Positions 1,912-29,065 of a DNA stretch of 39,395 bases are shown here, in pieces. Position 1 is the first letter of the stretch, and every line of letters begins with the position of its first letter. The notes below the pieces were generated by a model. The model did no database searches, was not told the origin of the DNA, and saw only the letters and a program-made list of their open reading frames with translations. Source of the DNA: Blastococcus sp. CCUG 61487 (GTDB lineage: Bacteria > Actinomycetota > Actinomycetes > Mycobacteriales > Geodermatophilaceae); NCBI RefSeq assembly GCF_005222955.1, contig NZ_LWUA01000222.1:1-39395 (forward strand). Direction: 5' to 3'. The translations under genes were made by a program, and so were the position numbers.

Positions 1912-1998
1912 TCGAGCCCCAGATTCCAAAGGGGGAGCAGGCGGCTTACAATCAGCGCCACGAGACCGTCGCTCCATGCGCGAGTCCCCAGCCAGGGC

Positions 1999-3462: not shown

Positions 3463-3748
3463 CGGGCGCAATGTCGCCAACGCCCGCTCGCTGACACCGC
3501 CTCCGACGGCAGATGCCTAGCGGGGGAGTCTAGGACCACAGTGCGGTCAAGCCGCAGCCAAAGATACGTCACATCGGATCGGCCCACCCCACTTGGGGGA
3601 CACGCAATCACTCCGCGAGGTGATTCTGTTCCGACCTCATGCCACGGTGGCCGCCAAGGCAGATGCGTCTGGGCCACCTTTGCAGACGCCCAGGGAATCC
3701 TGATACCAAGCCTCGTCGGTTCATTCGGCGAGTTCACAAGCTTCCTGC

Positions 3749-5272: not shown

Positions 5273-5496
5273 AGACGAAGGTTAGCAGTCGGCCTTCGTC
5301 CGGGTGTGGCGAGGAATCTGGCGGAATCGGACCAGGGCCCGTGGCGGCTAGGCAGTTTGCGCCCGGCGAGACCTAAGAGACGCCGCCTCGAGTTCGGTGT
5401 CTGTTTACCTCCCGGCTCCAGGGTGGCTCTCAAGGCGCACCAATGGGTTTCGCCCTTCGCCTCTGCACGCCATAAGAGTCGCCTCCAGCCTCCCCG

Positions 5497-6648: not shown

Positions 6649-7793
6649 GAAGAGATCACGCCAGGATTGCGCTTCAGGACGTCTTGATAGACCTGGGCTA
6701 GCCTTTCCGCAGTAGCGGCGCTCGAGAAGCTACCGAGCGCTGCACGAATCTCGGCGATGCGGTCGCTCTTTGCTCGCGCTCGATCGGCCAGTGCAGTCAG
6801 AATCGCTTCGCTCAACTGATCGTCGCGGTTAGCTTGCACCAGTTGTCCTCCCGCTCGCGGCACGAAGTCATCCGGCCCTCCCGGACCCGTCGCAACCACC
6901 GGGACGCCCATTGCTAGAGCTTCCAGAACGGTTACGCCGAAGGGCTCGGGTCGCGTGGAGCAGTGGACAACCACATCGCAGCCACCCATGAGTGCAACAG
7001 CGTCGTCTCTATGGCCGAGGACTCTGACAACGTGCTCAAGGCGCCTTGCGCGGATTGTCTCACGAAGCGCCGCGCCGGTCGACCCCACTTGCTGGTAGAA
7101 CTCGCCCCCCACGATTACGACTTTGGCTTCAGGAATCGACGCAAGCACGGACGGTATTGCCCGCAATAGCACGTCATGCCCCTTCCAGGCGTCGAGGCGG
7201 CCAAACATTCCGATGACCGGCGTATCAGCCGGCCAGCCCAAGTGAGAACGGATGTCTTCTGTCGCTGGCAGGTCATCGAAGTCGATTCCGTTGGGCACTA
7301 CGGCGGAGGATGCTCGCCACACTTTCGCGTAGGCCTTCGACATATACGTAGAAGGAACCACAACGCAGGCCTTGGGGGTTATGCGTATGAGACCTTGTAT
7401 ACCTGTGGAAGTGCGACTGCGCAGGGGTGCGTCATGCAGATGCATCACCGCCGGCACCTTCGCCCAAGCTGCGGCCAAGCCTCCGATAACCGACATGCTT
7501 TCTCCGACGGTATGGACCACATCTGGGCGCACTTCGACGATGAGCTCACGAACCCGTCGAATTGCGCCGATTGCTTGAGGCACGTCACGCAAGTGGGTGA
7601 AGGGCTTCAGGAGCCGAACGTCGACCGGAGTGTCTAGCAGGTCCTTCGTGAATGGCCCATTTGCCAGGTGGGCCACCACTGGCGCGATGTTGTAGCGAGG
7701 AAGCTCCCGCAGATTGCTGAGGAGCACAACTTCCCCGCCGGCCTTATGCCCCCCGGAGTGGACAAAAAGAATTTTGATTGGACGCATGCTCAT
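6645..7793 (-). CDS. GT4-family glycosyltransferase
   Basis: A 382-residue GT-B glycosyltransferase, paralogous in layout to its downstream neighbour. The N-terminal loop is SGGHKAGGEVVLL (13-25), the inter-domain strand is VIGMFGRLDAWKGHD (193-207), and the donor-site EX7E motif is complete as E283-PFGVTVL-E291. ATG 7793 is supported by AAGGGAAAGGAA about 6 nt upstream on the minus strand; a second ATG follows at 7787. The gene is coupled by a 4-bp overlap to the next glycosyltransferase, so the two probably act in succession on the same growing repeat unit. Sugar specificity cannot be read from the sequence. Confidence 0.87.
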   Translation of the reverse strand: MSMRPIKILFVHSGGHKAGGEVVLLSNLRELPRYNIAPVVAHLANGPFTKDLLDTPVDVRLLKPFTHLRDVPQAIGAIRRVRELIVEVRPDVVHTVGESMSVIGGLAAAWAKVPAVMHLHDAPLRSRTSTGIQGLIRITPKACVVVPSTYMSKAYAKVWRASSAVVPNGIDFDDLPATEDIRSHLGWPADTPVIGMFGRLDAWKGHDVLLRAIPSVLASIPEAKVVIVGGEFYQQVGSTGAALRETIRARRLEHVVRVLGHRDDAVALMGGCDVVVHCSTRPEPFGVTVLEALAMGVPVVATGPGGPDDFVPRAGGQLVQANRDDQLSEAILTALADRARAKSDRIAEIRAALGSFSSAATAERLAQVYQDVLKRNPGVISS

Positions 7794-7835
7794 CGTGGTT
7801 CCTTTCCCTTCTCCGGATGGTTGCCACGGTGACGT

Positions 7836-8615
7836 CTAGGTTTCAGATGAGTCGTCGACTGCCTCGCCTCCCTGCGCATGAACGCCTGCGCGTTCATCGT
7901 CGCAGAAATCAGCCACAGCTTCGAACAGATAGTCATGGTGCGTCATCTGCCGTCGAAGCCGCATCCGGGGAGTCAGCAGCTCAAGCACCGCATCAGGGGT
8001 ATCGGTCTCCACTAGGAGTAGCTCCGGGCAGTGTCGGGACAAGTCAAGCCCACTGAGGACGGCCAGTTCGGCTCCTTCGACGTCCACGGAGATCAAATTC
8101 GGTCGACCAAGCCCAGATTCGTCAATCAGTTCGGACATGGTCGCGGTCGGCACTACCACTTCCCGGCGCTTCACGCCCTGCAACCGTCTGCGTTCCTGCG
8201 CGGCGCCCTGGAGTCCTTCCGCCACAGACGTAAGGTTCGAGTCTATTATCTTGATCGTTGGGGGACCCCCCGGGCCCACCAAGGCGCGATTGAAGACGAT
8301 CGACCTCGACCGCGTACGGCGACAGGCGGCAGCTAGGCGCGGGAGGGGCTCAACCAACACGCCCGTCCAGCCCAAGTGGCGCTCCAAGTACCAGGTGTTG
8401 CTCTGGTTGTATCCGTCGTTTGCACCGACCTCTAGGAAGACTCCAGGGCTCCGAGCGGCCTCCCGAACCAGGTTCTTGTCAAGCTCGTAAAGTGCGGGCC
8501 AGCTGAACCTCGTGGATCCGATTCGCTCGGAAAGCCTGACCCGTGCGATTTTTAGTTCTCGTTTCAACGTCTCTGGTGTAGCTCGCCTTAGGGCCCGTCT
8601 AAGCAAGGTAGGCAC
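7836..8615 (-). CDS. FkbM-family methyltransferase
   Basis: A SAM-dependent O-methyltransferase of 259 residues, probably methylating a sugar hydroxyl of the polysaccharide. The SAM site is VFLEVGANDGYNQSN (about 59-73), followed by WTGVLVEP (83-90) and the FkbM signature SVDVEGAELAVL (176-187). The first 40 residues form a basic lead region. The start is GTG 8615; the purine run GGAAGG is immediately next to it, which is too close for an ideal ribosome site, so the true start is uncertain. It sits 42 bp upstream of the GT4 pair in the same direction. It ends with TAG and no SECIS-like hairpin follows, so UAG is read as stop here. Confidence 0.85.
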   Translation of the reverse strand: MPTLLRRALRRATPETLKRELKIARVRLSERIGSTRFSWPALYELDKNLVREAARSPGVFLEVGANDGYNQSNTWYLERHLGWTGVLVEPLPRLAAACRRTRSRSIVFNRALVGPGGPPTIKIIDSNLTSVAEGLQGAAQERRRLQGVKRREVVVPTATMSELIDESGLGRPNLISVDVEGAELAVLSGLDLSRHCPELLLVETDTPDAVLELLTPRMRLRRQMTHHDYLFEAVADFCDDERAGVHAQGGEAVDDSSET

Positions 8616-8671
8616 CCTTCCGATTTGGGGATGTAGAGGCGTCGCTCCTCAGCCGCACCCGCGTTACCGCG

Positions 8672-9949
8672 TTAGCGAATCAGCTTAGCTAAGGTCTTCG
8701 CGTCGGCCACTCGCGGGACAAGGCAGGTCACGGGCCTGACCCCCGCGGCGCGTCTGAGCTGAACGAGCGCGACGGCGAGCCCCGCCGCGTAAGATAAGAG
8801 ACTCGCTACCGCAGCGCCGTTGCCGCCGATCCATAGCGCTAGAGGAGGTAAGGCGATCAGCGATGGCACAAGGGCCGCGATCTGGTTCACGACTTGGCGA
8901 CCCGGGAGACCCAGCGCCACAAGGCCGGCGTTGATGACCGAAGTCAAGCCGGCGGGTATGGCAGCCACCGCCAGGATTTGAATCATCAACACAGCAGGCT
9001 GGAAATCGTCTCCGAACACAAGGGGCACAGCCCATGGAGCGACGCAGGCCGTCACGACAGCCATCGCCGCACCGCATATCGCTACGAGTCTGCATGACCT
9101 TGCTATCAGACTGACATCCCTCGCCCCTGCCGCCTCGGCGAGGAGTAGCTGTCGAAGTGCTCCGATCATGGTTTGCGGCACTTCGGCGACCGCAACCGCG
9201 ATAGCATAGAACGCGAGCTGCGGCGGGGTGACGAGTAAGACTAGTAGCGCTTGGTCCAGTCGGAGTACGAGAAAGCCGGATAGCGAGCCAGACCAGGTTC
9301 GGAGGCTGAAAGGCAAGAACGTGGTGAGCTGCGATAGCCGTGGCCACCCTCCCTTATAGGGCAGGCCCCAAAAAAGCAATAGTCCGCTAAGAAGCCCCGT
9401 GCCCCACGTGGAAAGCGCCGCCGTGAAGACGGTGAGACTATCCGCAGCGACTAGTACTAGGATCAATGCTAGGCGCAGGACGGGCGACAGCCACCGTTCG
9501 GTATAGACCAAACGCGTGTTGCCTAGTCCAAGATGGGCGCCCCTGGCCGCCCCCGTGGCGAGGGCCACAGGCAGAGTGGCGGCCAAAAGTGTCAGCAGGG
9601 ATACCTGGGCCGGATAGCGCGCAAGAAATATCGGCGCAACCACGACGAGTACTGCAAAGCCAAGAATGCCGGAAATTGTCGCGGCAGCTAGGGCAGTCCG
9701 GACGTGATGCTCTACATCCAGTCCGCTCCTTGAGCGGGCAGCGAAGTAAGTGGCGGCTTCCGAAGTTCCGAAAGTGAAAATGACGACAGCTAGGCTGAGG
9801 GGCGTCACAACCGCCGCTAGCTCACCTCTGCCAACCGGACCAAGCGCTCGGGCGAGGATCGGCGATGTGGCGAGCGCCACCAGTGGAAGCGCAAGCGATG
9901 AAAGAGCCGTACCCCGCACCAGGCGAGCAGTCGAACCTCGCTTCGACAC
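8672..9949 (-). CDS. Wzx-like polysaccharide flippase (MOP superfamily)
   Basis: This 425-residue protein has about twelve hydrophobic helices spread along its length and fits the multidrug/oligosaccharidyl-lipid/polysaccharide exporter superfamily. Its role is probably to move undecaprenyl-linked repeat units across the membrane. Helices begin soon after a short basic N-terminus, with RGELAAVVTPLSLAVVIF as the second segment. The central GFLVLRLDQALLVLL contains the conserved charged pair RLD typical of Wzx helix 7. The start is GTG 9949, preceded by a GGTGGGG purine run. It is the first gene of the minus-strand polysaccharide transcription unit, divergent from the GT2 at 10014. Confidence 0.82.
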   Translation of the reverse strand: MSKRGSTARLVRGTALSSLALPLVALATSPILARALGPVGRGELAAVVTPLSLAVVIFTFGTSEAATYFAARSRSGLDVEHHVRTALAAATISGILGFAVLVVVAPIFLARYPAQVSLLTLLAATLPVALATGAARGAHLGLGNTRLVYTERWLSPVLRLALILVLVAADSLTVFTAALSTWGTGLLSGLLLFWGLPYKGGWPRLSQLTTFLPFSLRTWSGSLSGFLVLRLDQALLVLLVTPPQLAFYAIAVAVAEVPQTMIGALRQLLLAEAAGARDVSLIARSCRLVAICGAAMAVVTACVAPWAVPLVFGDDFQPAVLMIQILAVAAIPAGLTSVINAGLVALGLPGRQVVNQIAALVPSLIALPPLALWIGGNGAAVASLLSYAAGLAVALVQLRRAAGVRPVTCLVPRVADAKTLAKLIR

Positions 9950-10013
9950 TCACCCCACCCATCGGCGCAGCCACCGTGTCAACAAGTCAAGTGGTAACTG
10001 TAGCATGCTCTGT
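9950..10013. promoter_or_regulatory. Divergent intergenic region of the polysaccharide cluster
   Basis: Only about 55-64 bp separate the flippase start (9949, minus) from the GT2 start (10005 or 10014, plus), so promoters for both directions must lie here or inside the opposing genes. The segment is AT-richer than its surroundings. I cannot name confident -35/-10 pairs. Confidence 0.4.
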
Positions 10014-10850
10014 ATGCGACAGGTTCCGGTGTCGGCCATCCTGCTTACACGCAACGAAGAGGCGCTGCTGCCGAGGTGTCTACACAACTTGCGGTGGGCC
10101 AAGGAAGTCATCGTGGTTGATTCGGGAAGCACCGATCGAACGATGGAGATCGCAGCGGAGTTCGGTGCTCGCGTGATCGAGCAGGAGTGGCTGGGGTTTC
10201 CGCAGCAGCGAAATTTCGGGGCCAAGCACGCCAATCACGATTGGATCTTCTATGTGGACGTTGACGAGGTCGCGGACGCAACGCTGACGGACTCGATTGC
10301 GCGGGCGGTCCAGGGCGGGCGTGCGGAGGTGAACATGTACGCAGTCGACCGCAGAAATGAGTTTCTCGGCACAGTCCTACCCAATGTGCAACGCAAGAGT
10401 GAGCGCATTGGCCGAGTCAGGCTCTATAACAAGCACCAAGCCCACTGGGACGAGTCGATGATTGTGCATGAGAAAGTCGTCGGTACCGGACCGAAGGTTC
10501 TTCTCCCAGGGGTCCTAATTCACTGGCGAACCCAGAGCTTGCGCGAACTGTTCGAGAGATTGAACAGCTATGCCGATCTAGAAGTGCAGCCGCTTCTCTC
10601 CCAGTCGCCATACCGACTCTTGGCTCAGGCGACTTTCAAGCCGGTCGCTAGGTTCTTATGGCTCTACATCGTGAAGCGAGAGTTCACGCAAGGGCCCCGG
10701 GGTCTAATTCATGCACTGCTCCGTAGTTACGCCGAGTTTGTACAGTACAGTCGTGCGTGGGAAGCCGTCGCGGTCGGTAGTGCGCCTATACATCCGCCCG
10801 GATTCGAGCCTCCGGCGGTTATCGTTGATGACGGAAAGCCCCTGCCGTAG
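10014..10850 (+). CDS. GT2-family glycosyltransferase (WaaE/LgtF-like)
   Basis: An inverting GT-A glycosyltransferase of 278 residues. The nucleotide-binding start is VSAILLTRNEEALLPRCL (6-23), followed by VIVVDSGSTDRT (32-43) and the metal-binding motif YVDVDE with D82-V-D84. PQQRNFGAK (63-71) and the later HEKVVG segment are typical of the WaaE/LgtF group, which add glucose or a related hexose to a core sugar. The C-terminal third is basic and amphipathic (LWLYIVKREFTQGPRGL), as in members that sit on the membrane. I chose ATG 10014 because the conserved strand follows at once; ATG 10005 is also in frame. It is the only plus-strand gene of the island and ends with TAG. Confidence 0.87.
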   Translation: MRQVPVSAILLTRNEEALLPRCLHNLRWAKEVIVVDSGSTDRTMEIAAEFGARVIEQEWLGFPQQRNFGAKHANHDWIFYVDVDEVADATLTDSIARAVQGGRAEVNMYAVDRRNEFLGTVLPNVQRKSERIGRVRLYNKHQAHWDESMIVHEKVVGTGPKVLLPGVLIHWRTQSLRELFERLNSYADLEVQPLLSQSPYRLLAQATFKPVARFLWLYIVKREFTQGPRGLIHALLRSYAEFVQYSRAWEAVAVGSAPIHPPGFEPPAVIVDDGKPLP

Positions 10851-15134: not shown

Positions 15135-16175
15135 TCAGCGGGTGATGGTGGAGGCGTGCTCGTGGGTGCCGGCGGCCAGCCGCTCGCGCTGCGGGACGAC
15201 GGTGTACTTCGGGTCGCGCGCGCTGGCCATACCGGCCTCGTAGACGCCGAAGCGGGTGAGCAGCGAACCGGCCGCAAGCAGCGCGCCCGACGCGATCGCG
15301 CCCAGCCGGGTACGCCCGCCGACGACCGCCAGCCCCAGCCCCGAGGCGGTGGACGCCCGGGCCGCCCGCATCAGCGTGCCGGCCTTGCCCTCGTGGTACG
15401 GCTCGGCGGCCAGCTCGTCGCTGCCCTCCACCGTGCGCAGCGCGGCCAGCTCGATGCCGGCCCCGAGGATCGCCATCTTGCGGGCCGGCTCGGACTCGTC
15501 GGTCGGCGTGAACACCAGGCACAGCCCGCCACCGGCGGCCATCGCCGAGCCCGCGAACACGTACGGCAGCCTGGTGGAGAAGTCGCGCCACGACGGGACG
15601 GCGGTGTTCGCGAACAGCACCGCCGTGTAGGTCGCCATCGGCGGGCCGAACAGCCCGGCCACGAACCCGCCGAACCGCTTCAGCCGCGGGAACCAGCCCA
15701 GCAGCTCCACGGCCGCCGTCGCCCCCGCCGCTGCGCTGAACGGCGCCAGGATGTAGGAGCCCACCGACAGCGCCGACGTCGGCTTCATCACCCGCAGCAT
15801 GTGCAGGAAGCGCTCCGGGCGGCCGAGGTCGTGGATCAGCCACCCGACCGAGGAGACCGCCGACCCGCCGGCGATCAGCCGCCCGGCCCGCGTCAGCGCC
15901 GGCCGGCCGCTCAGGTCGCCCAGCGCCGCGAGCACCGCCGACGTGCCGGCCGCGCCGCCGAGGAACAGGTACAGCGGGACGTCGGGGGTCTTCCACACCG
16001 GCGCCTTGATGATCGGCCGGTCGTAGTAGGAGGTGAACTCGGCGTCGTCGACCATCGACTGCTCGCCGACGGCCCGCCGGCCGCTGCGCCGTCGCCTGCC
16101 GTCGCCCTTCTTCTTGCCGACCCAGCCGTCGGCCCGGCGCCAGCCCGCCCCCGGGGTCACCAGCCCTTCGGTCAC
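15135..16175 (-). CDS. NrfD-type membrane subunit of formate dehydrogenase
   Basis: A 346-residue polytopic protein of the NrfD/PsrC family, expected to pass electrons from the Fe-S subunit to menaquinone. After a basic cytoplasmic lead (about 1-50) come YYDRPIIKAPVWKTPDVPLYLFLGG-type residues at the first helix, then GWLIHDLGRPERFLHMLRV, the family's conserved loop, and about eight helices in all. The start is GTG 16175, which overlaps the beta-subunit stop as GTGA (16172-16175) and has GGAGG about 6 nt upstream. It is the last gene of the operon. This is not the cytochrome b FdnI type, so quinone reduction would be haem-free in this subunit. Confidence 0.88.
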   Translation of the reverse strand: MTEGLVTPGAGWRRADGWVGKKKGDGRRRRSGRRAVGEQSMVDDAEFTSYYDRPIIKAPVWKTPDVPLYLFLGGAAGTSAVLAALGDLSGRPALTRAGRLIAGGSAVSSVGWLIHDLGRPERFLHMLRVMKPTSALSVGSYILAPFSAAAGATAAVELLGWFPRLKRFGGFVAGLFGPPMATYTAVLFANTAVPSWRDFSTRLPYVFAGSAMAAGGGLCLVFTPTDESEPARKMAILGAGIELAALRTVEGSDELAAEPYHEGKAGTLMRAARASTASGLGLAVVGGRTRLGAIASGALLAAGSLLTRFGVYEAGMASARDPKYTVVPQRERLAAGTHEHASTITR

Positions 16176-17227
16176 CGTGGCCTCCGGGAGCCGAGGACGG
16201 CGGTCAGTGCGACCCCGACGATCATCACGGCGGCCTTCCCGGCGGCCCGCCACATCGCGGGCAGGTCGCGGGCGGGGACGATCGGGTCCGGCGGCAGGCC
16301 GTAGACCTCGGGCTCGTCCAGCAGCAGGAAGAACGCCCCGTTACCGCCGACGCCGTCGTTCTCGTCGCGGCCGTACAGCCGCGCCGTCTCCACGCCCTGC
16401 TCCTTGAGCGTCGCCAGCCGCGCGTCGGCCCGGGCCTGCAACTCGTCGAGGTCGCCGAACTGGATCGACTGGGTGGGGCAGGCGGTGGCGCACGCCGGCT
16501 GCAGCCCGTCGGTCAGCCGGTCGTAGCACATCGTGCACTTGAAGACCCGGCCGTCGCCCTCGCGCTGGTCGATGACCCCGTACGGGCACGAGGGCACGCA
16601 GTAGCCGCAGCCGTTGCAGATGTCCTGCTGGACGACCACGGTGCCGTACTCGGTGCGGAACAGCGCCCCGGTCGGGCAGGCGTCCAGGCACCCGGCGTGC
16701 GTGCAGTGCTTGCAGACGTCGGAGCTCATCAGCCACCGGATCTCCCGGTCGGCCGAGTGCCCGGTCTGCGGGTCGAACTCGGTCAGCGCCTCGGCGTTGA
16801 GCACGCTCTGCTGCGCGCTCGCCAGGCTGTCGTCCTGCCGGGTGTCGATGCCCAGGTCCCGCCGCTGCGCCCCGGGCAGGCCGACCTGCGGCATCGGCAG
16901 GTCGACGGTGCGCGACTGCTCGATGAACGCCACGTGCCGCCAGGTGTTCGCGCCGAGCTGGCCGGTGTTGTCGTAGGACATGCCCGACAGGCCGAGGGCG
17001 TCGCGGTTGCCGTGCGCGTCGTCCATCGGGAGGGTGTTCCACTCCTTGCAGGCGACCTCGCAAGCCTTGCAGCCGATGCACACCGAGGTGTCGGTGAAGA
17101 ACCCGACCCGCTTCGGGTGGCCCTCGTCGTAGCCGGCCTCGGAGGTGACGTCGGGCAGCGGCCCGAACAGCCGGTTCTCGGGGTCGTTGCCCGTGAAGGC
17201 GGGGCTGGCCGAACTGATCATCGCCAT
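16172..17227 (-). CDS. Formate dehydrogenase 4Fe-4S (beta) subunit
   Basis: A 351-residue ferredoxin-type electron-transfer subunit with four Cys clusters. The first is C50-IG-C53-KA-C56-EVA-C60; CKHCTHAGCLDACPTG, CNGCGYCVPSCPYG and CTMCYDRL with CATACPTQS follow in order, consistent with four 4Fe-4S centres as in FdnH/HybA-type proteins. A C-terminal hydrophobic stretch (AAGKAAVMIVGVALTAVLG) could be a membrane anchor. ATG 17227 has AGGAGG 7 nt upstream. It lies 118 bp downstream of the alpha gene and overlaps the NrfD gene by 4 bp. It would pass electrons from the alpha-subunit cofactor to NrfD. Confidence 0.92.
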   Translation of the reverse strand: MAMISSASPAFTGNDPENRLFGPLPDVTSEAGYDEGHPKRVGFFTDTSVCIGCKACEVACKEWNTLPMDDAHGNRDALGLSGMSYDNTGQLGANTWRHVAFIEQSRTVDLPMPQVGLPGAQRRDLGIDTRQDDSLASAQQSVLNAEALTEFDPQTGHSADREIRWLMSSDVCKHCTHAGCLDACPTGALFRTEYGTVVVQQDICNGCGYCVPSCPYGVIDQREGDGRVFKCTMCYDRLTDGLQPACATACPTQSIQFGDLDELQARADARLATLKEQGVETARLYGRDENDGVGGNGAFFLLLDEPEVYGLPPDPIVPARDLPAMWRAAGKAAVMIVGVALTAVLGSRRPR

Positions 17228-17345: not shown

Positions 17346-20300
17346 TCATGGGGCCTCCACCGCGGTGCTCTCCACCGCGACCCGGCCGCCCGTGGGCATC
17401 AGCCCGCTCGGCATGCCGGCCCGCTGCCGGTACTCCTCGAGGAACTGCACCAGCTCCGGCCCGCGCGGGCGCCGGCCCGGGCGAATGTCGCAGGTCGCGG
17501 CCTTGCTCTCCTGGATGTGCACGTTGGAGTCCATGACCACGCCGAGCAGGTCGTTGGCGGAGTCACCGGTCGCTATCCCGCCCTCGCCCCAGTGGTACGG
17601 GATGCCGATCTGGTGCACGACCCGCCCGCCGCCGAGCTTCAGCGGGCGCATCCGCTCGGTCACCAGCACCCGGGCCTCCACCGCGGCCCGGCCGGTCACG
17701 ACGGTCGCCCAGCCGCCGTTCTCCAGCCCGCGCTCCTCGGCCAGCTGGGGGCTGACCTCCACGAAGAACTCCGGCTGCAGCTCGGCGAGGTAGGGCAGGA
17801 AGCGGCTCATGCCGCCGGCGGTGTGGTGCTCGGTGAGCCGGTAGGTGGTGAACACGTACGGGAAGACGTCGCTGGCCGCGTCGTTCTTGCGGTTGTACGG
17901 CGCGTGCAGCACCTCCCGCGCGGGATTGGCCTGTACGCCGTACAGCGGGTTCAGCACCGGCGACTCGGCCGGCTCGTAGTGCGTCGGCAGCGGCCCGTCG
18001 GTCATCCCCTTGGGTGCGAACAGCCACGCCTTGCCGTCGCTCTGCATGATGAACGGGTCGGCGCCGCCGATCGCGGCCTGGGCCTTGGCACCGTCCGGCG
18101 GCACGTAGCTCGGCGGCTTGGTTGCCTCGAAGTCGGGGACGTCACCCGTCGAGGTCCACCGCCCGGCGTCCTCGTCCCACCAGACGTACTTCTTCCGCTC
18201 GCTCCACGGCTTGCCCTCCGGGTCGGCCGAGGCACGGTTGTAGAGGATCCGGCGGTTGGCCGGCCACGCCCAGCCCCACTCGGAGGCGACCTCGTTCATC
18301 TCGTGGCGAGGCTTGCGACGGCGGGCCTGGTTGACCTCGTCGGCGTAGACCCCGGTGTAGATCCAGCAGCCACCGCTGGTCGACCCGTCGTCCTTCATCT
18401 CGTTGAAGGTCGACAGCAGCTTCCCGTCGGGCCCGAAGCCGTTGATCTCGCGCAGCACGGCGTCGGCGCTCGGCTCGTCCCACGGCCCGTGCGTCGGGTA
18501 GTCCCAGGTGAGGTCCAGCAGCGGGCGGTCCCGCCGGTCGGTGGAGTCCTTGAGCTTCTCGCGGAGCATCCGGCCCAGGTGGAAGTAGAACCACAGGTCG
18601 CTGCGGGCATCGCCCGGCGGGTCGACGGCCTTGTCCCGCCACTGCAGCATCCGCTGGGTCTGGGTGAACGTGCCCTCCTTCTCCGCGTACGAGGCGGCGG
18701 GCATGAAGAAGACCTCGGTGGCGATCTGGTCGGTGACCAGCTCGCCGGTCGCGATCTCCGGGGCGTCCTTCCAGAAGGTGGCCGACTCGATGAACTGCAG
18801 GTCGCGGACGACGAGCCACTCGAGGTTGGCCAGCCCGAACCGCTGCATCCGGCCGTTGGCGTGCCCGACCGACGGGTTCTCACCGACGAGGAAGTAGCCG
18901 GGGACCTTGCCCTCGATCATGTCGCTGACCGTGCGGTAGGAGCTGTGGTCGCCGTTGATCCGCGGCAGGTAGTCGAAGGCGAAGTCGTTCTCCGGCGTCG
19001 CCGCGTCGCCCCACCACGCCTTGAGCAGGCTGACCATGTACGCCCGCTTGTTCCCCCAGAAGCCGCCGGCGCCCTCGGACTCCGCGACGTACTCGTCGAG
19101 GTTGCTGTGCTGGTCGGCGTGCGGCATCGGCAGGTAGCCGGGCAGCAGGTTGAACAGCGTCGGGATGTCGGTGGAGCCCTGGATGCTCGCGTGCCCGCGC
19201 AGCGCCAGGATCCCGCCGCCCGGCCGGCCCATGTTGCCCAGCAGCGCCTGCAGCAGCGACGCCGTCCGGATGTACTGCGCACCCACGGTGTGCTGCGTCC
19301 AGCCGACCGAGTACACCCACGCCGTCGTCCGCTCGCGGCCGCTGTTCGCCGTGACCCACTCGGCGACCTTGAGGAACACCTCCGGCTCGATGCCGCAGAC
19401 CTCGGCCACCATCTCCGGGGTGTACCGGGAGTAGTGCCGCTTGAGCACCTGGAAGACCGACCGGGGGTGCTGCAGCGTCTCGTCCCGCTTGGGCTTGGCC
19501 CCCAGCGACGGCCCGCCCGACCCGGCGGCGTGCGCCTGGTCGGCCCGCTTCACCGACTCCTGCTGGGAGAGCTCCTCCTGCTCGTGACCCTCGGCCGGCT
19601 GGTCCCGGGACTCCGTGCCCGGCTCCATCTCGAACTGCCAGGTCTCCTGGTCGTAGTGCCCCTTCTCGGGGTCGTAGCCGGAGAACAGTCCGTCGAGGTC
19701 CTCGGGGCCCTGGAAGTCCTCGCGCACGATCGCCGGGGCGTTGGTGTAGGCGACCACGTACTCCTTGAAGTACAGGTCGTTGTCCAGGACGTACTTGATC
19801 AGCCCGCCGAGGAAGGCGATGTCACTGCCGGCGCGCAGCGGCACGTGCAGGTCGGCGATCGCGCTGGTGCGGGTGAACCGCGGGTCGATGTGGATGACCT
19901 TCGCGCCGCGCGCCTTGGCCTCGCTCACCCACTGGAACCCCACCGGGTGGCACTCGGCCATGTTGGAGCCCTCGATGACGATGCAATCCGCATTCGCCAG
20001 GTCCTGCTGCGTGCCCGTGGCGCCGCCACGTCCGAACGAGGTGCCCAGACCGGGCACCGTGGAGGAGTGCTATATCCGGGCCTGGTTCTCGATCTGGATC
20101 GCGCCCAGGGCGCTGTAGAGCTTCTTCATGAGGTAGTTCTCCTCGTTGTCGAGGGTCGCCCCTCCGAGGCTCGCTATCCCCATGGTTCTTCCGAGCCGCC
20201 GGCCCTGCCCATCGGCGGACTGCCAGGTCTTGCGGCGTGCGTCGAGGACGCGGTCGGCGATCATCTCCATCGCCGTGTCGAGGTCGAGGTCCTCCCACTC

Positions 20301-20633
20301 GGTCCCGTAGGGACGGCGGTACTTGACCGTGGTGACCCGGGTCGGGCTGGTGACCAACTGCTTGCTGGCGCTGCCCTTGGGGCACAGCCGGCCGCGGTTG
20401 ACCGGCGAATCCGGATTGCCCTCGATCTGGACGATCTGCTCGTCCTTCACGTAGATGTTCTGCGCGCAGCCGACGGCGCAGTACGGGCAGACGCTCTTGA
20501 CCACGCGGTCGGCGGTGGCGGTGCGCGAGACGGTCGCCTCGGTCGCCTTGCTGCGCGCGGCGGCGCCGCGTCCGAGCGGATCGGAGCCGGTGAGCTGGCG
20601 GTACACCGGCCAGCTGTCGAGCCAGGTCTTCAC
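17346..20633 (-). CDS. fdh: Formate dehydrogenase alpha subunit, UAG-encoded selenocysteine
   Basis: A molybdopterin (bis-MGD) oxidoreductase oxidising formate to CO2, 1095 residues if the in-frame TAG at 20070-20072 is read through. N-terminal 4Fe-4S site: C49, C52, C56, C84 (CPYCAVGC, then GRLCPKG). Codon 188 is TAG in IENQARI-TAG-HSSTVPGLG, exactly where formate dehydrogenases have catalytic Sec or Cys followed by His. Downstream is the intact active-site region FGRGGATGTQQDL and GSNMAE, then the full molybdopterin domains and the C-terminal dinucleotide-binding domain (GWATVVTGRAAVEARVL, IPYHWG). A SECIS-like hairpin begins 11 nt after TAG. Start GTG 20633 is chosen from the family N-terminus (KTWLDSWPVYRQL); its ribosome site is weak. 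Without recoding, translation would stop after 187 residues. The beta and NrfD genes follow. Confidence 0.93.
20040..20072 (-). promoter_or_regulatory. UAG recoding site with bacterial SECIS-like hairpin
   Basis: On the coding strand TAG (20072-20070) is followed by 11 nt, then GGTGCCC-GGTCT-GGGCACC (20058-20040): a perfect 7-bp stem with a five-base GGTCT loop. In E. coli fdhF the SelB-binding minihelix likewise starts 11 nt after the Sec codon, and its loop contains GGUCU. The distance from codon to loop is 18 nt, and the loop opens with G, as in general bacterial SECIS models. The bulged U of the E. coli stem is absent. The hairpin lies within coding sequence for STVPGLGTSF. Confidence 0.9.
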
Positions 20634-21899: not shown

Positions 21900-23093
21900 T
21901 CAGGTGAGTTGGCGGGCCGTCAAGACCTCGACCACAGCGGGCGCCTCGAAGAGACGGCCGTACGGGCGGCCCGTTCGTTCGCGCAAGATGCCGAGGCCCA
22001 CAAGGCGGGCTACCGCCTTGTTGACCGTCTGAAAAGTGCTGTCCAGCCGCGCCGCCGTCCGCGAGACGTCGATGTACGGGTAGGCGATGAGGGACTCCGC
22101 CAGATCCCGGACGAGGCCCACCGCACCTTCATCTCGCAGGGTCTGGGCGTAGCCCTCCTGGACGCGAAGGAGACGGTCCACCCGGATGGCAGTGTCCAGA
22201 GCGGAGTTCTCGATTCCCTCCGCGAAAAATCTGATCCACCCATCCCAATCACCGCTGGCACTGACCTCGAGCAGGCGGTCCTGGTACTCGCGGCGCCGCT
22301 GCTCGAACCACGGCGAGATGCTCAGGAGCGGATCCTCCAGGGCCGCGTCCTGGATGAGCTGCAGGACCACGAGCAGGCGGCCGATCCGTCCGTTGCCATC
22401 GTTGAAGGGGTGCAGTGCTTCGAACTGGTAATGCGCCATTGCCGCGGCCACCACAGGGTCACGTCGCGCGGCTCGTGACGTGTTCATCCAGTCCAACAGG
22501 TCGCGCAACGAACGCTCCAACTCCGGGCCAGGTGGAGGAGGCACGTAGCGCGCCGTTTCGATGCTGCCGCCCGCTTCACCGATGGCGACCTGGATGGTCC
22601 TGACATGACCGGCGTGCTCGGTATCAGCCGGGGTACCGCGTGCCAGGCGCCCCTGCATGTCTTCCACCATGGCTACACCGAGCGGCCGCCCGTCAGCCAG
22701 CTCCGCGAAGGCGAACTCGGCCGTCTGGACGTAGTTCAACACCTCGGCCAGCTCGAGCGACAACTTCCCCTCGTCCAGCGCGTCCACCGCGAGCACGTCT
22801 TCCAGCGGAGCGAAGGTCCCTTCGAGCGCTGACGTGCTCTGCGCCTCCCGGCGCAGCGTCGGGCGTCGCAGCAGTCCCGGCTGAGGTATCTGACGGCCGG
22901 CCTGGAGCAAGCGGCCCAAGGCATGCCCGGCGCGACTGACCGCCCGCCAGGTGTCGCCTGAGAGGACAGGATCGTCTGCTAGCGGATCTGGGATGAACGC
23001 CACGTGGTCGTACTCCCGGCCGGTGCGGCCGTCGGTGCCACGGACAGGCTCGAGGTGTCCGACAGGGGAGGATGAAAAGCGATCCGCTTGCAA
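21900..23093 (-). CDS. Fic-family protein with class II inhibitory motif and wHTH tail
   Basis: A 397-residue Fic protein, expected to AMPylate or otherwise modify a target hydroxyl using a nucleotide. The catalytic motif is HPFNDGNGRIGR, with catalytic His228. The N-terminal inhibitory helix carries T87-SAL-E91-G92, matching (S/T)xxxE(G/N), so activity is probably self-restrained (class II). The C-terminal 80 residues contain a winged-helix-like region (DVSRTAARLDSTFQTVNKAV), as in DUF4172/Fic-wHTH proteins. Start TTG 23093 has AGGAG 6 nt upstream; upstream frames are closed. No antitoxin gene is next to it, consistent with the built-in inhibitor. A direct repeat lies 44-80 bp upstream. Confidence 0.88.
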   Translation of the reverse strand: MQADRFSSSPVGHLEPVRGTDGRTGREYDHVAFIPDPLADDPVLSGDTWRAVSRAGHALGRLLQAGRQIPQPGLLRRPTLRREAQSTSALEGTFAPLEDVLAVDALDEGKLSLELAEVLNYVQTAEFAFAELADGRPLGVAMVEDMQGRLARGTPADTEHAGHVRTIQVAIGEAGGSIETARYVPPPPGPELERSLRDLLDWMNTSRAARRDPVVAAAMAHYQFEALHPFNDGNGRIGRLLVVLQLIQDAALEDPLLSISPWFEQRRREYQDRLLEVSASGDWDGWIRFFAEGIENSALDTAIRVDRLLRVQEGYAQTLRDEGAVGLVRDLAESLIAYPYIDVSRTAARLDSTFQTVNKAVARLVGLGILRERTGRPYGRLFEAPAVVEVLTARQLT

Positions 23094-24402: not shown

Positions 24403-24518
24403 GGCGTGCGGTCTCCCTGGGCTGCGGAGCGGCTGGTCCGCTCCCTGCTCGCCGTCGACCATCGGCGCCGATCCGCAGGCCCGCCCCGAGGAAGCCGCAA
24501 GGGATCCGCAAGATGCGG

Positions 24519-24551
24519 CGGTACCCCCGATGGGGTGACAGGGGGGTACCG
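24519..24551. promoter_or_regulatory. 10-bp interrupted palindrome in the tasA-like/GGDEF divergent region
   Basis: CGGTACCCCC (24519-24528) pairs with GGGGGTACCG (24542-24551) around a 13-nt spacer. It lies between the divergent starts at 24402 and 24591 and is a candidate operator or leader hairpin. Its location inside the longest version of the plus-strand frame is one reason to place that gene's start at 24591. Confidence 0.4.
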
Positions 24552-24590
24552 GCGCTGCAGCAGGGCGCCGCGGAGCCCGACATCCACGAG

Positions 24591-26492
24591 GTGACCACCG
24601 CGTCGGCTCCGGGGCAGCTCCCGGCGGCGCCCCGTGCGGGGCGCGCCGGGCCCGTCGCCGTCGCCGCAGCAGCCGTCGTCGTCATCGGCGCGCTGCTCGT
24701 CCAGGCTCTCGGCCCCGGCCTCGCGGCCGCCACCGCCGGCCTGGTCGCCGTCCTCACCGCGCAGGTCGTGCTGTGGCAGCGGCAGCGCCGCCTCGCCGGC
24801 GCCCTGCGGCGCAGCCAGATCTCGCTGCGCACCCTCGTGCGCAGCAGCGTCGACGCCGTCGTCCTCCTCGACGACGCCCTGTGCGTCACCTTCGCCTCCG
24901 AGGCCGCCGCCGACCTGCTGGGCCTGGACGCCGCCGCCGTCCTGGGCCGGCCGGTCGCCGAGGCCGTGCACCCCGCCGACCGGGCCGGGCTGTTCGCCGC
25001 GCTGCTCAGCGGCAGCGAGACCGCCGTCCGCACCGCCCGCGTCTGCCAGCCCGACGGCACCTGGCGCCTGGTCCAGGCCACCATCCGCGACCTGCGGGGC
25101 GACCCCGACGTCGGCGGGCTGGTGCTGCACTGCCGCGACGTCAGCGTCGGCGCCCCCGCTCCCGGCGCGGACACCGAACTGCTCGAGCTCTCCCTCACCG
25201 ACGCCGTCACCGGGCTGCCCAACCGGACGGCGCTGGTCCGCCGCCTCGGCGCGCTGGCCCGCGAGACCGACGACCGCCCGCTGGCCATGGCCCTCATCGG
25301 CATCAGCGGGTGGGGGCCGGACGTGCTCTCCCCCGCCGCCGAGGCCACCGTGCTGCGCGCGCTGAGCTCCCGGCTGTCCCGTGCGCTCCGCGGCGAGGAC
25401 TGGCTGGCCCGCGGCACCGACGGCGACTTCGTCGTCCTCGTCGAGGGAAGCGTCGCCGACGCCGAGGTGGTCGCCGCCCGGCTGATCGCCACCGTCGGCC
25501 CGCTCGCCACCCCGACCGGCACCCTGCCGCTCACCGCCGCCGCCGGTGTCAGCGCCCTGGAGCACGACCTCGACCCCGGCGAGGCGCTGCGCCGGGCCGA
25601 CCTTGCGCTGCGCTCCGCCCGCCGCGCCGGCACCGGCTGCGTGCACCGCTACGACGACGCCCTGCGCACCGAGCAGGACCGCCGCACCGCCCTGCGCACC
25701 GACCTCCGCGGCGCCCTGGAGCGCGGCGAGCTGCGGCTGGTCTTCCAGCCGGTCGTCGACGCCGTCCTGCAGCGCACCGTCACCGTCGAGGCGCTGCTGC
25801 GCTGGCAGCACCCCGTCTTCGGCGACGTCCCGCCGGTGGAGTTCGTGCCGCTGGCCGAGGAGACCTCGCTGATCATCGACATCGGCCGGTGGGTGCTGCT
25901 CGAGGCCTGCCGCACCGTCGCGGCCCAGGACGACGCGGAGCTCGGCGTCGCCGTCAACGTCTCCGCCCGCCAGGTGCGCAGCGGCGAACTGGTGCCCGAC
26001 GTGCTCGCGGCGCTGGAGACCAGCGGCCTGCACCCCTCCCGGCTGCTCGTCGAGATCACCGAATCGGTGCTGCTCGACGACGCGCACGTCATCGAGGACC
26101 TCGGCGCCCTGCGCAGGCTCGGCGTCCGCATCGCCGTCGACGACTTCGGCACCGGCTGGTCGTCGCTGGCCTACCTGGTCGGCATGCCGGTCGACGTCCT
26201 CAAGATGGACCAGTACTTCCTGGCCGACGTCGAGCACGACCCCGCCCGCCGCGCCATGTGTCGCGCGGTGCTGCAGCTCGGCGCCAGCATCGGCCTGCCG
26301 GTGATCGTCGAGGGCGTCACTACCCCGGCCACCCTCGCGCTGCTGCGCGACATGGGGCACCGGTACCTCCAGGGCTTCCAGCTCTCCCGCCCGCTGGAGG
26401 CCGACCGGCTCGCCGACAGCGCCCAGCTCGCCGCCGCCGCACTCGACGCCGCCGCGGTCCCCGCGCCCCGCACCCCGGTGGTGCTCCCGTGA
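24591..26492 (+). CDS. PAS-GGDEF(degenerate)-EAL membrane protein, likely c-di-GMP phosphodiesterase
   Basis: About 633 residues. Two N-terminal hydrophobic helices (AGPVAVAAAAVVVIGALLV, then LAAATAGLVAVLTAQVVL) precede a PAS domain (SSVDAVVLLDDALCVTFA). The GGDEF domain has the position of the signature occupied by TDGDF (about 276-280), so cyclase activity is unlikely. The EAL domain looks active: E400-ALLRW, DDFGTGWSSL (from about 517), LKMDQYFL and VEGV. The net role is therefore probably hydrolysis of c-di-GMP. GTG 24591 is preferred because codons before it include rare ones and a palindrome; ATG 24513 is also in frame. The stop overlaps the next gene's start as GTGA, so the two proteins are translated together. 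Confidence 0.85.
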   Translation: MTTASAPGQLPAAPRAGRAGPVAVAAAAVVVIGALLVQALGPGLAAATAGLVAVLTAQVVLWQRQRRLAGALRRSQISLRTLVRSSVDAVVLLDDALCVTFASEAAADLLGLDAAAVLGRPVAEAVHPADRAGLFAALLSGSETAVRTARVCQPDGTWRLVQATIRDLRGDPDVGGLVLHCRDVSVGAPAPGADTELLELSLTDAVTGLPNRTALVRRLGALARETDDRPLAMALIGISGWGPDVLSPAAEATVLRALSSRLSRALRGEDWLARGTDGDFVVLVEGSVADAEVVAARLIATVGPLATPTGTLPLTAAAGVSALEHDLDPGEALRRADLALRSARRAGTGCVHRYDDALRTEQDRRTALRTDLRGALERGELRLVFQPVVDAVLQRTVTVEALLRWQHPVFGDVPPVEFVPLAEETSLIIDIGRWVLLEACRTVAAQDDAELGVAVNVSARQVRSGELVPDVLAALETSGLHPSRLLVEITESVLLDDAHVIEDLGALRRLGVRIAVDDFGTGWSSLAYLVGMPVDVLKMDQYFLADVEHDPARRAMCRAVLQLGASIGLPVIVEGVTTPATLALLRDMGHRYLQGFQLSRPLEADRLADSAQLAAAALDAAAVPAPRTPVVLP

Positions 26493-29065
26493 CCACCTTC
26501 CGGACCATGCCCGCACAGCTGCGCTGGACCCTGCTGCTCGGGCTGCTGGGCCTCGCCGTCACCGTGCCGTTCAGCTCCCCCGACGGCACCGGCATGCAGT
26601 GGGACGAGCTCGTGCTCGGCTCGATCGCGCTCAGCTGCGCCTCGTTGGCCTCGCGCCGGCTGTGGCAGATGGACCGCAACGCGGCCCGCCCCTGGTGGCC
26701 GCTGCTGTTCGGCTCGGTCAGCTTCGCCGTCTCGCAGTTCCTCGCGGGGCTCTTCCCCGGCCCGGCGTTCGACGGCTTCGGTGCCGACGACGTCCTGCTC
26801 TTCCTCGGCGCTACCTCGCCGCTGGTCACCTGCTTCCTCCTGGCCCGCCGGGTCATGCGCACCCGGTGGACGGCGCTGCTCGTCGACGGCGCGCTGGTCA
26901 CCCTCGCCCTGCTCGTGGTCACGGAGGTGCTGCGGACGCCGCTGGTCAACCCCGCGGACGCCCCCGAGGACCTGCGCACGCTCGTGCTCGCCTACGGCGG
27001 CTACAGCGCGGTCATGCTCGGTGGGGCCGGCGCGCTGTGCACCGTCTCCACCCGGGCGATGCGCAGCGCCGTCACCACGCTGATCTTCGCGGTCACCGCG
27101 CAGGCCGCCGCCGGTGCGTGCGAGGCCATGGCCATCCTCGCGCCGTCCCCGCTGTGGACCGCCGGCTCCGACGTCTCGGTGGCGCTGGCCTTCCAGCTGG
27201 CGATCCTCGCCCTGCTCCGCTCCCCCGTGCGGTTCACCGACCGCTCGGCCCGCGCGTCCGCCCCGGTGATCAGCAGCGCCGGGCTGAGCCTGGTCGTGCT
27301 GGCCATGCTGAGCCTGCCCGCCGCCCTGGCCTACGCCCTGCTCGCCGACGAGCCGCTGTCGGTCGGCGCCGAGCTCGGCTGCGGCGCGATCTTCGTCCTG
27401 CTGGGCATCCGCCAGGTGCTGCGCATCCGCGAGGACGGCCGGCTGACCGAGGACCTCGTCCGCAGCGAGGAGGACTTCCGCGAGCTGGTCGAGGCGAGCT
27501 CCGACGGCATCGCGATCATCGACGGCGACTTCCAGCTGCTGTTCACCTCCCCCGCCGCGCGCCGGCTGCTCGGCATCGGCGCCGACCTCGACGACGGCGT
27601 CACGCTGCTCGACCTGGTCCGCCCCGAGGACCGCGCCGCCCTGCGCGCCGCGGGCGAGGAGCCCGCGACCGGCACCGGCCCCGCCATCCACCTGGGCGTG
27701 ACCGCCGAGGACGGCACCGCCCGGGAGCTCGAGGTCGCCTCCTCCGAGCGGCCCGGCAGCGGCCGGCGGGTGCTGTACCTGCGCGACGTCACGACCCGCC
27801 GCCGCCGCGAGCGCGAGCTCGAGCGGATGGCCTACACCGACGACCTCACCCGGCTGCCCAACCGCGCCGTGCTGTTCCAGGAGCTGGCCGCGGACTCGGC
27901 CGCGCCGCGCTGCCTGCTGGTGCTCGACATGGACGGGTTCAAGCAGGTGAACGACGGCGCCGGGCACGAGGCCGGTGACCAGCTGCTGGTCGAGGTCGCC
28001 CGCCGGCTGCGCACCGTCGTCCGCGACTCCGACGTGATCGCCCGGCTCGGCGGCGACGAGTTCGCCGTCGTCGTCACCGGCGACCTGGACGAGGCCGCGG
28101 ACGTGGCCGGACGCATCGTGCAGATCATGGGCCTGCCGTACCGCGTGGAGGGCCGCACCTATGCCGTCGGCGCCAGCGTCGGGCTGGCGGAGGTCGGCCC
28201 CGGTGGCGGGCGGCTCGCCTTCCGCAAGGCCGACGCCGCGCTGCTCGCCGCCAAGGCCGCGGGCAAGGGCTGCGTGCGGATCGCCGACGCCGAGGAGGCC
28301 GCCCCCGACACCGACGTCTTCTACGCCGCGCGCGCCGAGGGCGAGATGGGCCTGCGACTGGACGCCGCGGTCGGCCCGGACGGCTCGGTGGAGCTGCTGC
28401 ACGCCCTTCCCCGCTGGACCCACCCGACGCTCGGCGTTCTGCAGGGCCCGGACATCTGGTCCTCGGCCGAGCGGCACGGCCGCAGCGCCGAGCTGCAGCG
28501 CTGGCTGATCGAGCGTGCTGCGTCCGCGGTCGTCGCGCTGCCCGATCCGCGGGTCGCCGTCGCGGTGAGCCTGCCCGCCGGGCACGTCTCCGGTGACGGG
28601 CTCGCCTCCGCCGTCGCCACCACCCTGGCCGACACCGGCCTGGCGCCCGCCCGGCTGATCGTCTCCCTCACCGAGGAGACGCTCCTGACCTCCCCGGCGA
28701 CCCTGGTCGCCGAGCTGGAGGCCATGCGCCGGCTCGGCGTCCGGCTCTGCCTGGACGACTACGGGATGGGACACAGCCTGTTCGCGCTGCTCGCCCGCGT
28801 CCCGTTCGACCTCATCCGGGTGGACCTGCACGCGCTGGCCGCCCGCCAGGACACCGAGCGGGCGCTGCGGGTGCTCGCCGCGATCGTGCAGACGACGGCG
28901 AGCTTCGGGCTCGACGTCGTCGCCGGGGGGATCGCCACCCCCGAGCTGCGGGAGGCCGCCGTCGCCACCGGGGTGCAGCTCCTGCACGGCCGCGCGCTGC
29001 CGCACGACCTCACCCCCGAGACCGCGACCGACCTCCTCGCCCTCGCCCCCGTCTCCGCCTCCTGA
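26489..29065 (+). CDS. Polytopic PAS-GGDEF-EAL(degenerate) protein, likely diguanylate cyclase
   Basis: An 858-residue protein. The first ~310 residues contain about ten hydrophobic helices, a MASE-like membrane sensor. A PAS domain follows (EDFRELVEASSDGIAIIDG, from about 327), then GGDEF with an intact signature RLGGDEFAVVV (GGDEF at 521-525), DMDGFKQVND and the usual LTRLPNR start. The EAL domain is degenerate: HALPRW replaces EALLRW (about 638-643), DDYGMGHS replaces DDFGTGYS, and AGGIATPEL replaces the EGVE segment. It therefore probably makes c-di-GMP and only senses or scaffolds through its EAL part. The GTG at 26489 overlaps the upstream stop by 4 bp. The 25-bp palindrome at 29085 follows. 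Confidence 0.87.
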   Translation: MTTFRTMPAQLRWTLLLGLLGLAVTVPFSSPDGTGMQWDELVLGSIALSCASLASRRLWQMDRNAARPWWPLLFGSVSFAVSQFLAGLFPGPAFDGFGADDVLLFLGATSPLVTCFLLARRVMRTRWTALLVDGALVTLALLVVTEVLRTPLVNPADAPEDLRTLVLAYGGYSAVMLGGAGALCTVSTRAMRSAVTTLIFAVTAQAAAGACEAMAILAPSPLWTAGSDVSVALAFQLAILALLRSPVRFTDRSARASAPVISSAGLSLVVLAMLSLPAALAYALLADEPLSVGAELGCGAIFVLLGIRQVLRIREDGRLTEDLVRSEEDFRELVEASSDGIAIIDGDFQLLFTSPAARRLLGIGADLDDGVTLLDLVRPEDRAALRAAGEEPATGTGPAIHLGVTAEDGTARELEVASSERPGSGRRVLYLRDVTTRRRRERELERMAYTDDLTRLPNRAVLFQELAADSAAPRCLLVLDMDGFKQVNDGAGHEAGDQLLVEVARRLRTVVRDSDVIARLGGDEFAVVVTGDLDEAADVAGRIVQIMGLPYRVEGRTYAVGASVGLAEVGPGGGRLAFRKADAALLAAKAAGKGCVRIADAEEAAPDTDVFYAARAEGEMGLRLDAAVGPDGSVELLHALPRWTHPTLGVLQGPDIWSSAERHGRSAELQRWLIERAASAVVALPDPRVAVAVSLPAGHVSGDGLASAVATTLADTGLAPARLIVSLTEETLLTSPATLVAELEAMRRLGVRLCLDDYGMGHSLFALLARVPFDLIRVDLHALAARQDTERALRVLAAIVQTTASFGLDVVAGGIATPELREAAVATGVQLLHGRALPHDLTPETATDLLALAPVSAS

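What the first reader, a model, noticed from the sequence alone, without database searches (positions are those of the whole stretch)
20040..20072. UAG-encoded selenocysteine in formate dehydrogenase, with a SECIS-like hairpin
Seen: the formate dehydrogenase alpha frame is interrupted only once, by TAG, at the exact position of the catalytic Cys/Sec (QARI-TAG-HSSTV). Exactly 11 nt later comes GGTGCCC-GGTCT-GGGCACC, a perfect stem with the GGUCU loop of the E. coli fdhF SECIS at the same distance. Both flanks are well conserved, so gene decay is unlikely. Known: UAG-directed Sec insertion was reported for Geodermatophilus and Blastococcus (Mukai and colleagues, 2016). Inference: this is one full selenoprotein gene, which standard annotation would split at the TAG into a short fragment and an N-terminally truncated enzyme.
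Basis: partly seen in the sequence, partly recalled or inferred. Interest (0 to 1): 0.97.

Follow-up and report, generated by a model that had tools for sequence, protein, structure and literature searches.

The report
UAG-coded selenocysteine in formate dehydrogenase
A soil bacterium appears to read one UAG stop codon in its formate dehydrogenase gene as the rare amino acid selenocysteine; this code variant was already known in its family, but relatives show genes that were re-spelled to fit it and one genome that may use two stop codons for selenocysteine.

Summary
Observation right, reading supported. On the minus strand a formate dehydrogenase (FDH) alpha gene (17346-20633) has one internal stop, TAG, at the catalytic Cys/Sec site; 11 nt later stands the hairpin GGTGCCC-GGTCT-GGGCACC. 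The same genome has a tRNA-Sec with anticodon CUA beside selA, selB (cut by a contig end) and selD, and a second, unrelated gene (UGSC family) with TAG at its Sec site. TAG is at the FDH site in 63 of 63 named Geodermatophilaceae loci, TGA in 17 of 17 named loci of other Actinomycetota. The hairpin is kept (at least 6 of 7 pairs) in 119 of 119 Sec rows and in 2 of 19 Cys rows. UAG-selenocysteine in this family has been in print since 2016-2017, so the gene is a new member of a known kind. Less familiar are three facts about the relatives: inside the family, seven genomes of three genera have a UCA tRNA-Sec instead, and four of them a different FDH with TGA; extra FDH copies fall in separate places among TGA genes, so TAG arose at the site at least three times; and Geodermatophilus sp. 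LHW52908 also carries a tRNA-Sec(UCA) beside a TGA-containing AhpD-like gene, possibly two Sec codons in one cell.

The parts
17346..20633 (-). FDH alpha gene, GTG start (tentative) to TGA stop, read through one TAG; about 1095 residues
   Evidence: NF041513 1946 bits (cut-off 1400), TIGR01553 966.5 bits (cut-off 814.2); Pfam molybdopterin domains
20070..20072 (-). TAG, proposed Sec codon, at the site of Cys in 19 Cys-type and of TGA in 47 TGA-type homologues
20059..20069 (-). 11-nt spacer between codon and hairpin
20040..20058 (-). SECIS-like hairpin, 7-bp stem and GGTCT loop
16172..17227 (-). 4Fe-4S (Fer4_11) subunit, next gene of the likely operon
   Evidence: 87.1 bits
15135..16253 (-). 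NrfD-type membrane subunit, third gene of the likely operon (ORF bounds; true start may be inside)
   Evidence: 37.3 bits

Best explanation
One full-length selenoprotein gene. SelA, with selenophosphate from SelD, converts Ser-tRNA-Sec(CUA) to Sec-tRNA-Sec. SelB brings it to the ribosome at this UAG, held there by the hairpin 11 nt downstream, and Sec goes into the catalytic site in competition with release factor 1. The enzyme works with its Fe-S and NrfD-type membrane subunits. UAG stays an ordinary stop where no hairpin follows. Shown by sequence here: codon, hairpin and its conservation, tRNA anticodon, sel genes, operon. Inferred from established knowledge of the pathway: charging, SelB binding, Sec insertion, enzyme activity.
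For: TAG at the exact site. tRNA-Sec(CUA) next to selA, selB and selD. Second UAG-Sec gene in the same genome: UGSC family, ALAD*GSCTSC, with an 8-bp hairpin GTCGTGCA-GTG-TGCACGAC 11 nt later. TAG in 63 of 63 named family loci against TGA in 17 of 17 outgroup loci. Codon and anticodon go together inside the family: CUA tRNA in 101 of 112 genomes; in four genomes of genus g7 a different FDH has TGA exactly at this site, and in three of those four (G072-G074) the tRNA-Sec was read as UCA. Hairpin in 119 of 119 Sec rows against 2 of 19 Cys rows; two facing silent bases pair in 34 of 34 distinct rows with five pair types, shuffles mean 18.9, maximum 30. TAG arose at the site at least three times. 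UAG is the stop of 2 of 14 window genes, so it is not reassigned throughout.
Against: No direct proof of Sec here. The Rfam SECIS match is below its gathering score and the hairpin energy is not unusual on the longer piece. selB is cut by the contig end, so its hairpin-binding domain was not seen in this genome. The hairpin loss in Cys rows is partly tied to an amino-acid change (Pro to Ala, Val or Ser) in the stem. pylS was not searched for, so Pyl is argued against, not excluded by search.
Confidence: 0.95

Rival explanations
1. Nonsense mutation or sequencing error in a decaying gene.
For: There is an in-frame stop, and broken FDH copies do exist in the family: G079 has two copies in pieces that lack the Sec region.
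Against: 907 codons stay open after the TAG; same TAG in 63 of 63 named family loci; hairpin and silent pairing kept; cognate tRNA-Sec(CUA).
Confidence: 0.01
2. UAG is read as pyrrolysine; ARAGORN labels the tRNA as tRNA-Pyl.
For: ARAGORN names it tRNA-Pyl, anticodon cta.
Against: It scores 64.2 bits as tRNA-Sec, and no other Rfam family was reported there at E up to 0.01; it lies 33 bp before selA; the relatives' tRNAs differ from UCA tRNA-Sec mainly at the anticodon; the site is Cys or TGA in homologues.
Confidence: 0.01
3. The enzyme is made in two pieces, by termination at UAG and restart at the GTG at 20057.
For: An ORF 17346-20057 (903 aa) starts with GTG 12 nt after the TAG.
Against: It leaves out the catalytic residue and the 4Fe-4S domain (residues 44-95), and does not account for the hairpin, its silent pairing or the CUA tRNA-Sec.
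Confidence: 0.02
4. UAG is read by an ordinary tRNA at low level (general readthrough), giving a Gln, Lys or Ser form.
For: Misreading of UAG is a known side product when UAG-Sec systems are engineered in E. coli (review passage PMC10778597).
Against: A dedicated CUA tRNA-Sec is in 101 of 112 family genomes and the site is a catalytic Cys/Sec. A minor fraction of such product is not excluded.
Confidence: 0.01

Closest known systems
UAG-directed selenocysteine in Geodermatophilaceae (Mukai et al. 2016, doi 10.1002/anie.201511657: not held, content recalled; Santesmasses et al. 2017, PMC5330540: section 17 read, other passages seen)
   Same: Family, tRNA-Sec(CUA), FDH with UAG, UGSC-motif gene with UAG. 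By genus code the window is Blastococcus, a genus named there.
   Different: A further species. Those texts, as far as seen, speak of three genomes; here 112 genomes and 80 named loci. The AhpC with UAG that PMC5330540 reports for Blastococcus saxobsidens was not looked for in this genome.
UGA-directed Sec in FDH of other Actinomycetota
   Same: Homologous gene, same site, same spacing and GGTCT loop.
   Different: TGA in 47 of 47 rows read (17 named, 30 from the class sample).
E. coli fdhF SECIS (recalled)
   Same: GGUCU loop and 11-nt spacing, as recalled.
   Different: Other stem sequence; UGA codon. Not compared by a call.
CxxU AhpD-like selenoproteins (NF041238 and TIGR01926 in the table of review PMC13188914, passages seen)
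   Same: The LHW52908 gene P0002 fits TIGR01926 (112.6 bits, cut-off 81.8) with CxxU.
   Different: It stands in a genome whose other Sec codons read are UAG and has a UCA tRNA-Sec at its side. It is below the NF041238 cut-off (51.8 against 175).

Membership tests
UAG-Sec decoding as in Geodermatophilaceae | In-frame TAG at a Cys/Sec site of a known selenoprotein family | tested here: met
UAG-Sec decoding as in Geodermatophilaceae | tRNA-Sec with anticodon CUA in the genome | tested here: met
UAG-Sec decoding as in Geodermatophilaceae | selA, selB and selD | tested here: met
   selB only in its first 323 codons, cut by the contig end
UAG-Sec decoding as in Geodermatophilaceae | Hairpin (SECIS) shortly after the codon, kept in relatives | tested here: met
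UAG-Sec decoding as in Geodermatophilaceae | Sec found in the protein | not testable with these tools
   needs 75Se labelling or mass spectrometry
Rfam SECIS_3 (RF01989) | Score at or above the gathering score of 63 bits | tested here: not met
   25.7 bits; it works like a SECIS but is not filed under this Rfam family
Actinobacterial formate dehydrogenase NF041513 | Score over the curated cut-off of 1400 bits | tested here: met
   1946.4 bits for the read-through protein
Pyrrolysine decoding | pylS and Pyl biosynthesis genes | not tested

The most novel reading that the evidence does not exclude
The family's private Sec codon is a barrier that genes must be fitted to. FDH genes of separate descent were each changed from TGA to TAG (at least three separate changes), some probably after coming in from UGA-Sec actinobacteria. 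In Geodermatophilus sp. LHW52908 a UGA selenoprotein gene met the barrier the other way, by coming with its own tRNA-Sec(UCA), so that one cell, with one SelB found, reads both UAG and UGA as Sec.
Probability: 0.45. Interest if true: 0.8.

Novelty: new member of a known kind. Interest (0 to 1): 0.5.

Why it matters
The gene adds one more case to a published code variant; automatic annotation would still tend to cut it in two. The comparison is worth more. It places a natural change of Sec codon and anticodon inside one bacterial family, with lineages of both kinds at hand, and offers natural cases of what happens to a gene in a cell with another code: it is re-spelled, or it keeps its codon and has its own tRNA beside it. 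How a code change becomes fixed could then be tested in cultivable soil bacteria.

Tried and rejected
Searches translated an offset frame and were repeated in frame. Eight FDH rows showed a TGA besides the TAG; I took them for possible second Sec codons, but in all eight (L013, L017-L022, L027) the TGA lies at the C-terminal end. In one search the selB query was in the wrong frame; its selB rows are not used. In one search the second fold (L207:1-60) was of a wrong stretch and is not used; the UGSC hairpin fold is. The pattern match in G233 is not called a tRNA by ARAGORN and was set aside. A TAG in G839's FDH is not at the site; the site reads TGA (L266). A TAG in a short FDH-like fragment of G070 (44-63% identity in pieces) stands at query residue 52, not 189. 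L090 and L091 (G079) lack the site and gave a meaningless GCC; they are left out of all later counts. Contig C17 of G058 as a contaminant: held unlikely, since the stretch 20-40 kb has GC 0.76 like the genome's other loci and 28-32 kb matches same-genus DNA in pieces of 74-86% identity in G041 and G053; not excluded. Viral contigs: no relative of the AhpD-like protein and no match to the CUA tRNA pattern. Plasmids: the AhpD-like protein finds 333 records, all under 60% identity; FDH finds 985, best 63%. An Rfam scan of the AhpD hairpin found nothing.

Full report
OBSERVATION. The minus-strand frame that ends at 17346 is open from the GTG at 20633 except for one TAG at 20070-20072, in ...IENQARI*HSSTVPGLGT..., with 187 codons before and 907 after it. 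Eleven bases later comes GGTGCCC-GGTCT-GGGCACC at 20058-20040. The read-through protein scores 1946 bits against NF041513, formate dehydrogenase (cut-off 1400), and 966 against TIGR01553. Next in the same direction are a 4Fe-4S subunit (16172-17227) and an NrfD-type membrane subunit (15135-16253), a usual make-up of a membrane-bound FDH (established knowledge).

IS IT CHANCE? The hairpin alone is not overwhelming in GC-rich DNA: 15,013 of 200,000 synonymous recodings have 7 Watson-Crick pairs at that place and 1,107 also the GGTCT loop; the Rfam SECIS_3 match of 25.7 bits is below its gathering score of 63. Conservation settles it. I took 119 Sec-type rows: 63 named family loci, the window's own, 8 further copies from family genomes, 17 named outgroup loci and 30 loci of the class sample. 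Of these 119, 119 have at least 6 of 7 pairs, 102 all 7, and 118 the loop GGTCT. Of 20 rows fetched as controls, one (L266) proved to have TGA at the site; of the other 19, all Cys (18 TGC, 1 TGT), none has 7 pairs, 2 have 6, and 3 have the loop. Part of that loss goes with an amino-acid change in the stem (Pro to Ala, Val or Ser), so the two cannot be told apart there. Two silent third bases that face each other in the stem (Val and the second Gly) pair in 34 of 34 distinct Sec rows, with five pair types; shuffles give a mean of 18.9 and at most 30. This counts sequences, not events.

THE MACHINERY. The window's genome (G000, 4.11 Mb, 296 contigs, 98.65% complete) has a tRNA-Sec at C50:8348-8439, 64.2 bits against a cut-off of 47, with anticodon loop CTCTAAA, anticodon CUA. 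selA follows at 8473-9804; selB starts at 9795 and runs off the contig; selD lies before them on the other strand. Of the nine further hits, seven were read and are tRNA-Ser, -Arg, -Tyr, -Gly or -Leu; one of them, a tRNA-Ser, is also over the cut-off (48.8 bits); the last two (32.1 and 30.6 bits) were not read. A second, unrelated gene of the UGSC family has TAG at its motif (ALAD*GSCTSC) and an 8-bp hairpin GTCGTGCA-GTG-TGCACGAC 11 nt later. UAG is still an ordinary stop: 2 of 14 window genes examined end with it.

DISTRIBUTION. Of 112 family genomes 101 have an FDH match at E up to 1e-50; in 98 of these a match spans the site and 98 of 98 hold a TAG; its exact place was read in 30 of the loci. 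G033, G079 and G096 have no match that spans it. The CUA tRNA pattern is in 101 of 112. The 11 without it are two incomplete genomes (G097, G098) and all nine genomes of three genera, g5-g7. In seven of these nine I read the tRNA-Sec as UCA; in the other two (G067, G071) none was read. The nine have no FDH match at 1e-50; G070 has a short FDH-like fragment with pieces up to 63% identity. Four of them (G071-G074) have a different FDH, 30-35% identical, with TGA exactly at this site. Named records: TAG in 63 of 63 Geodermatophilaceae loci (Geodermatophilus, Blastococcus, Modestobacter, Klenkia, Goekera and others by title; L131 and L142 by their place in the tree), TGA in 17 of 17 loci of other Actinomycetota; these are the best 80 of 538 relatives. 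In a class sample of 394 genomes 109 have an FDH, in 112 rows: 75 with one TGA, 3 with one TAG (G000 and G022 of this family; G839, whose TAG is off the site), 19 full-length without a stop, which are the Cys rows above, and 15 partial rows that begin past the site and were not read. In a phylum sample of 396 genomes the CUA pattern is in the own genome and in one other stretch that ARAGORN does not call a tRNA. Between the family's UCA and CUA tRNAs, anticodon positions 34 and 35 and one stem pair differ. TGA to TAG likewise takes two changes; a path through UUA and UAA is inference.

SEPARATE CHANGES TO TAG. Some family genomes have further FDH copies; seven of those fetched (L082-L088) are 65-68% identical to the window's and have TAG too. 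They do not group with the main copies. On a FastTree of 82 rows TAG needs four changes, all four forced by well-supported branches; on an IQ-TREE of 38 of these rows four changes, three forced. The AU test rejects one TAG clade (p 2.8e-47), main plus L083 (1.7e-5), main plus L085-L088 (1.5e-5) and L083 plus L085-L088 (4.1e-71); it does not reject main plus L082/L084 (0.094). The groups were named after the first tree was seen. So TAG came to the site at least three times. L083 sits inside a set of TGA genes of another family (79% identity to L244), which looks like an import that was re-spelled. But old paralogues that were all re-spelled when the anticodon changed, with losses elsewhere, are not excluded.

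TWO SEC CODONS IN ONE GENOME? It also has a second tRNA-Sec, 81.8 bits, anticodon UCA. Among the tRNAs read, it is the only one of 112 genomes with both; that search used stricter filters, and second hits near 50 bits in other genomes, of the kind that is tRNA-Ser in the own genome, were not read. At 315 bp from it, on the other strand, is an AhpD-like gene (TIGR01926, 112.6 bits, cut-off 81.8) with one TGA, in STLNRCFY*MESHAEF, where 5 of 5 family homologues compared have Cys. Ten nt later stands the hairpin ACGCAGA-GTT-TCTGCGT; its energy is not unusual (59 of 200 shuffles) and no Rfam family matches. The gene has GC 0.60, the next 20 kb of the contig 0.76. Four ORFs within 8 kb have transposase or integrase domains. 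One SelB over the cut-off was found in this genome; the second hit is below it. Of 112 family genomes only G058 has a close copy of this gene; five others have Cys relatives at 33-40%. This rests on one assembly.

LITERATURE. Section 17 of PMC5330540 (read) says that three genomes of Geodermatophilaceae have tRNA-Sec with CUA, as Mukai and colleagues had reported in 2016, with FDH and UGSC-motif selenoproteins, and adds an AhpC with UAG in Blastococcus saxobsidens. The 2016 paper is not held; that it showed UAG-Sec synthesis by 75Se labelling or mass spectrometry is recalled. Passages of PMC10778597 and PMC8124441 also cite it. In six full-text searches, of which I saw listings and the passages named, I met nothing on repeated change of FDH genes to TAG or on two Sec stop codons in one bacterium; most subscription papers are not in that library, and the 2016 paper itself could hold either.

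VERDICT. Observation confirmed, interpretation supported, the window's gene a new member of a known kind. The more interesting part lies in the relatives.

Noticed in passing
L072:1173-1263 (-) and L072:1579-2157 (+), Geodermatophilus sp. LHW52908 (G058 contig C17): tRNA-Sec(UCA) 315 bp from an AhpD-like gene with an in-frame TGA at a CxxC-type Cys site and a hairpin 10 nt later, in a low-GC stretch with transposase genes, in a genome that otherwise has UAG-Sec genes.
   Followed up: partly
L082-L088 (FDH copies in G038, G001, G057, G097, G052, G032, G092): Diverged FDH copies with TAG that fall among TGA genes in the tree: separate changes to TAG.
   Followed up: partly
L043-L048, L051 and L095-L098 (genera g5-g7 of the family): UCA tRNA-Sec in seven genomes, and in G071-G074 another FDH with TGA at the Sec site: codon and anticodon differ inside one family.
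   Followed up: partly
Decay or assembly trouble at a hairpin.
   Followed up: partly
L207 (G000:C52, TAG at 36838-36840 on -): Second UAG-Sec gene of the window's genome, UGSC family.
   Followed up: yes
L212, L213 (G066, G072): UGSC-family genes of two genomes with a UCA tRNA-Sec have Cys, no stop, at the motif; no UGSC row shows a TGA.
   Followed up: partly
L142 (SPQJ01000035.1): Record titled Bacillus sp. AZ43 (marked unverified) whose FDH groups with Blastococcus and has TAG; probably mislabelled.
   Followed up: no
L001, L073 (tRNA at 1501-1596 and 6197-6292): ARAGORN names the CUA tRNA-Sec tRNA-Pyl, so annotation pipelines that use it would mislabel these genes.
   Followed up: no
window 811-10850: Polysaccharide gene cluster: glycosyl transferases, Wzz-like, Wzy_C-like and flippase-type proteins.
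   Followed up: no
window 21900-23093 (-) and 24513-29065 (+): A Fic-domain protein upstream of the FDH gene, and two overlapping ORFs with PAS-GGDEF-EAL domains.
   Followed up: no
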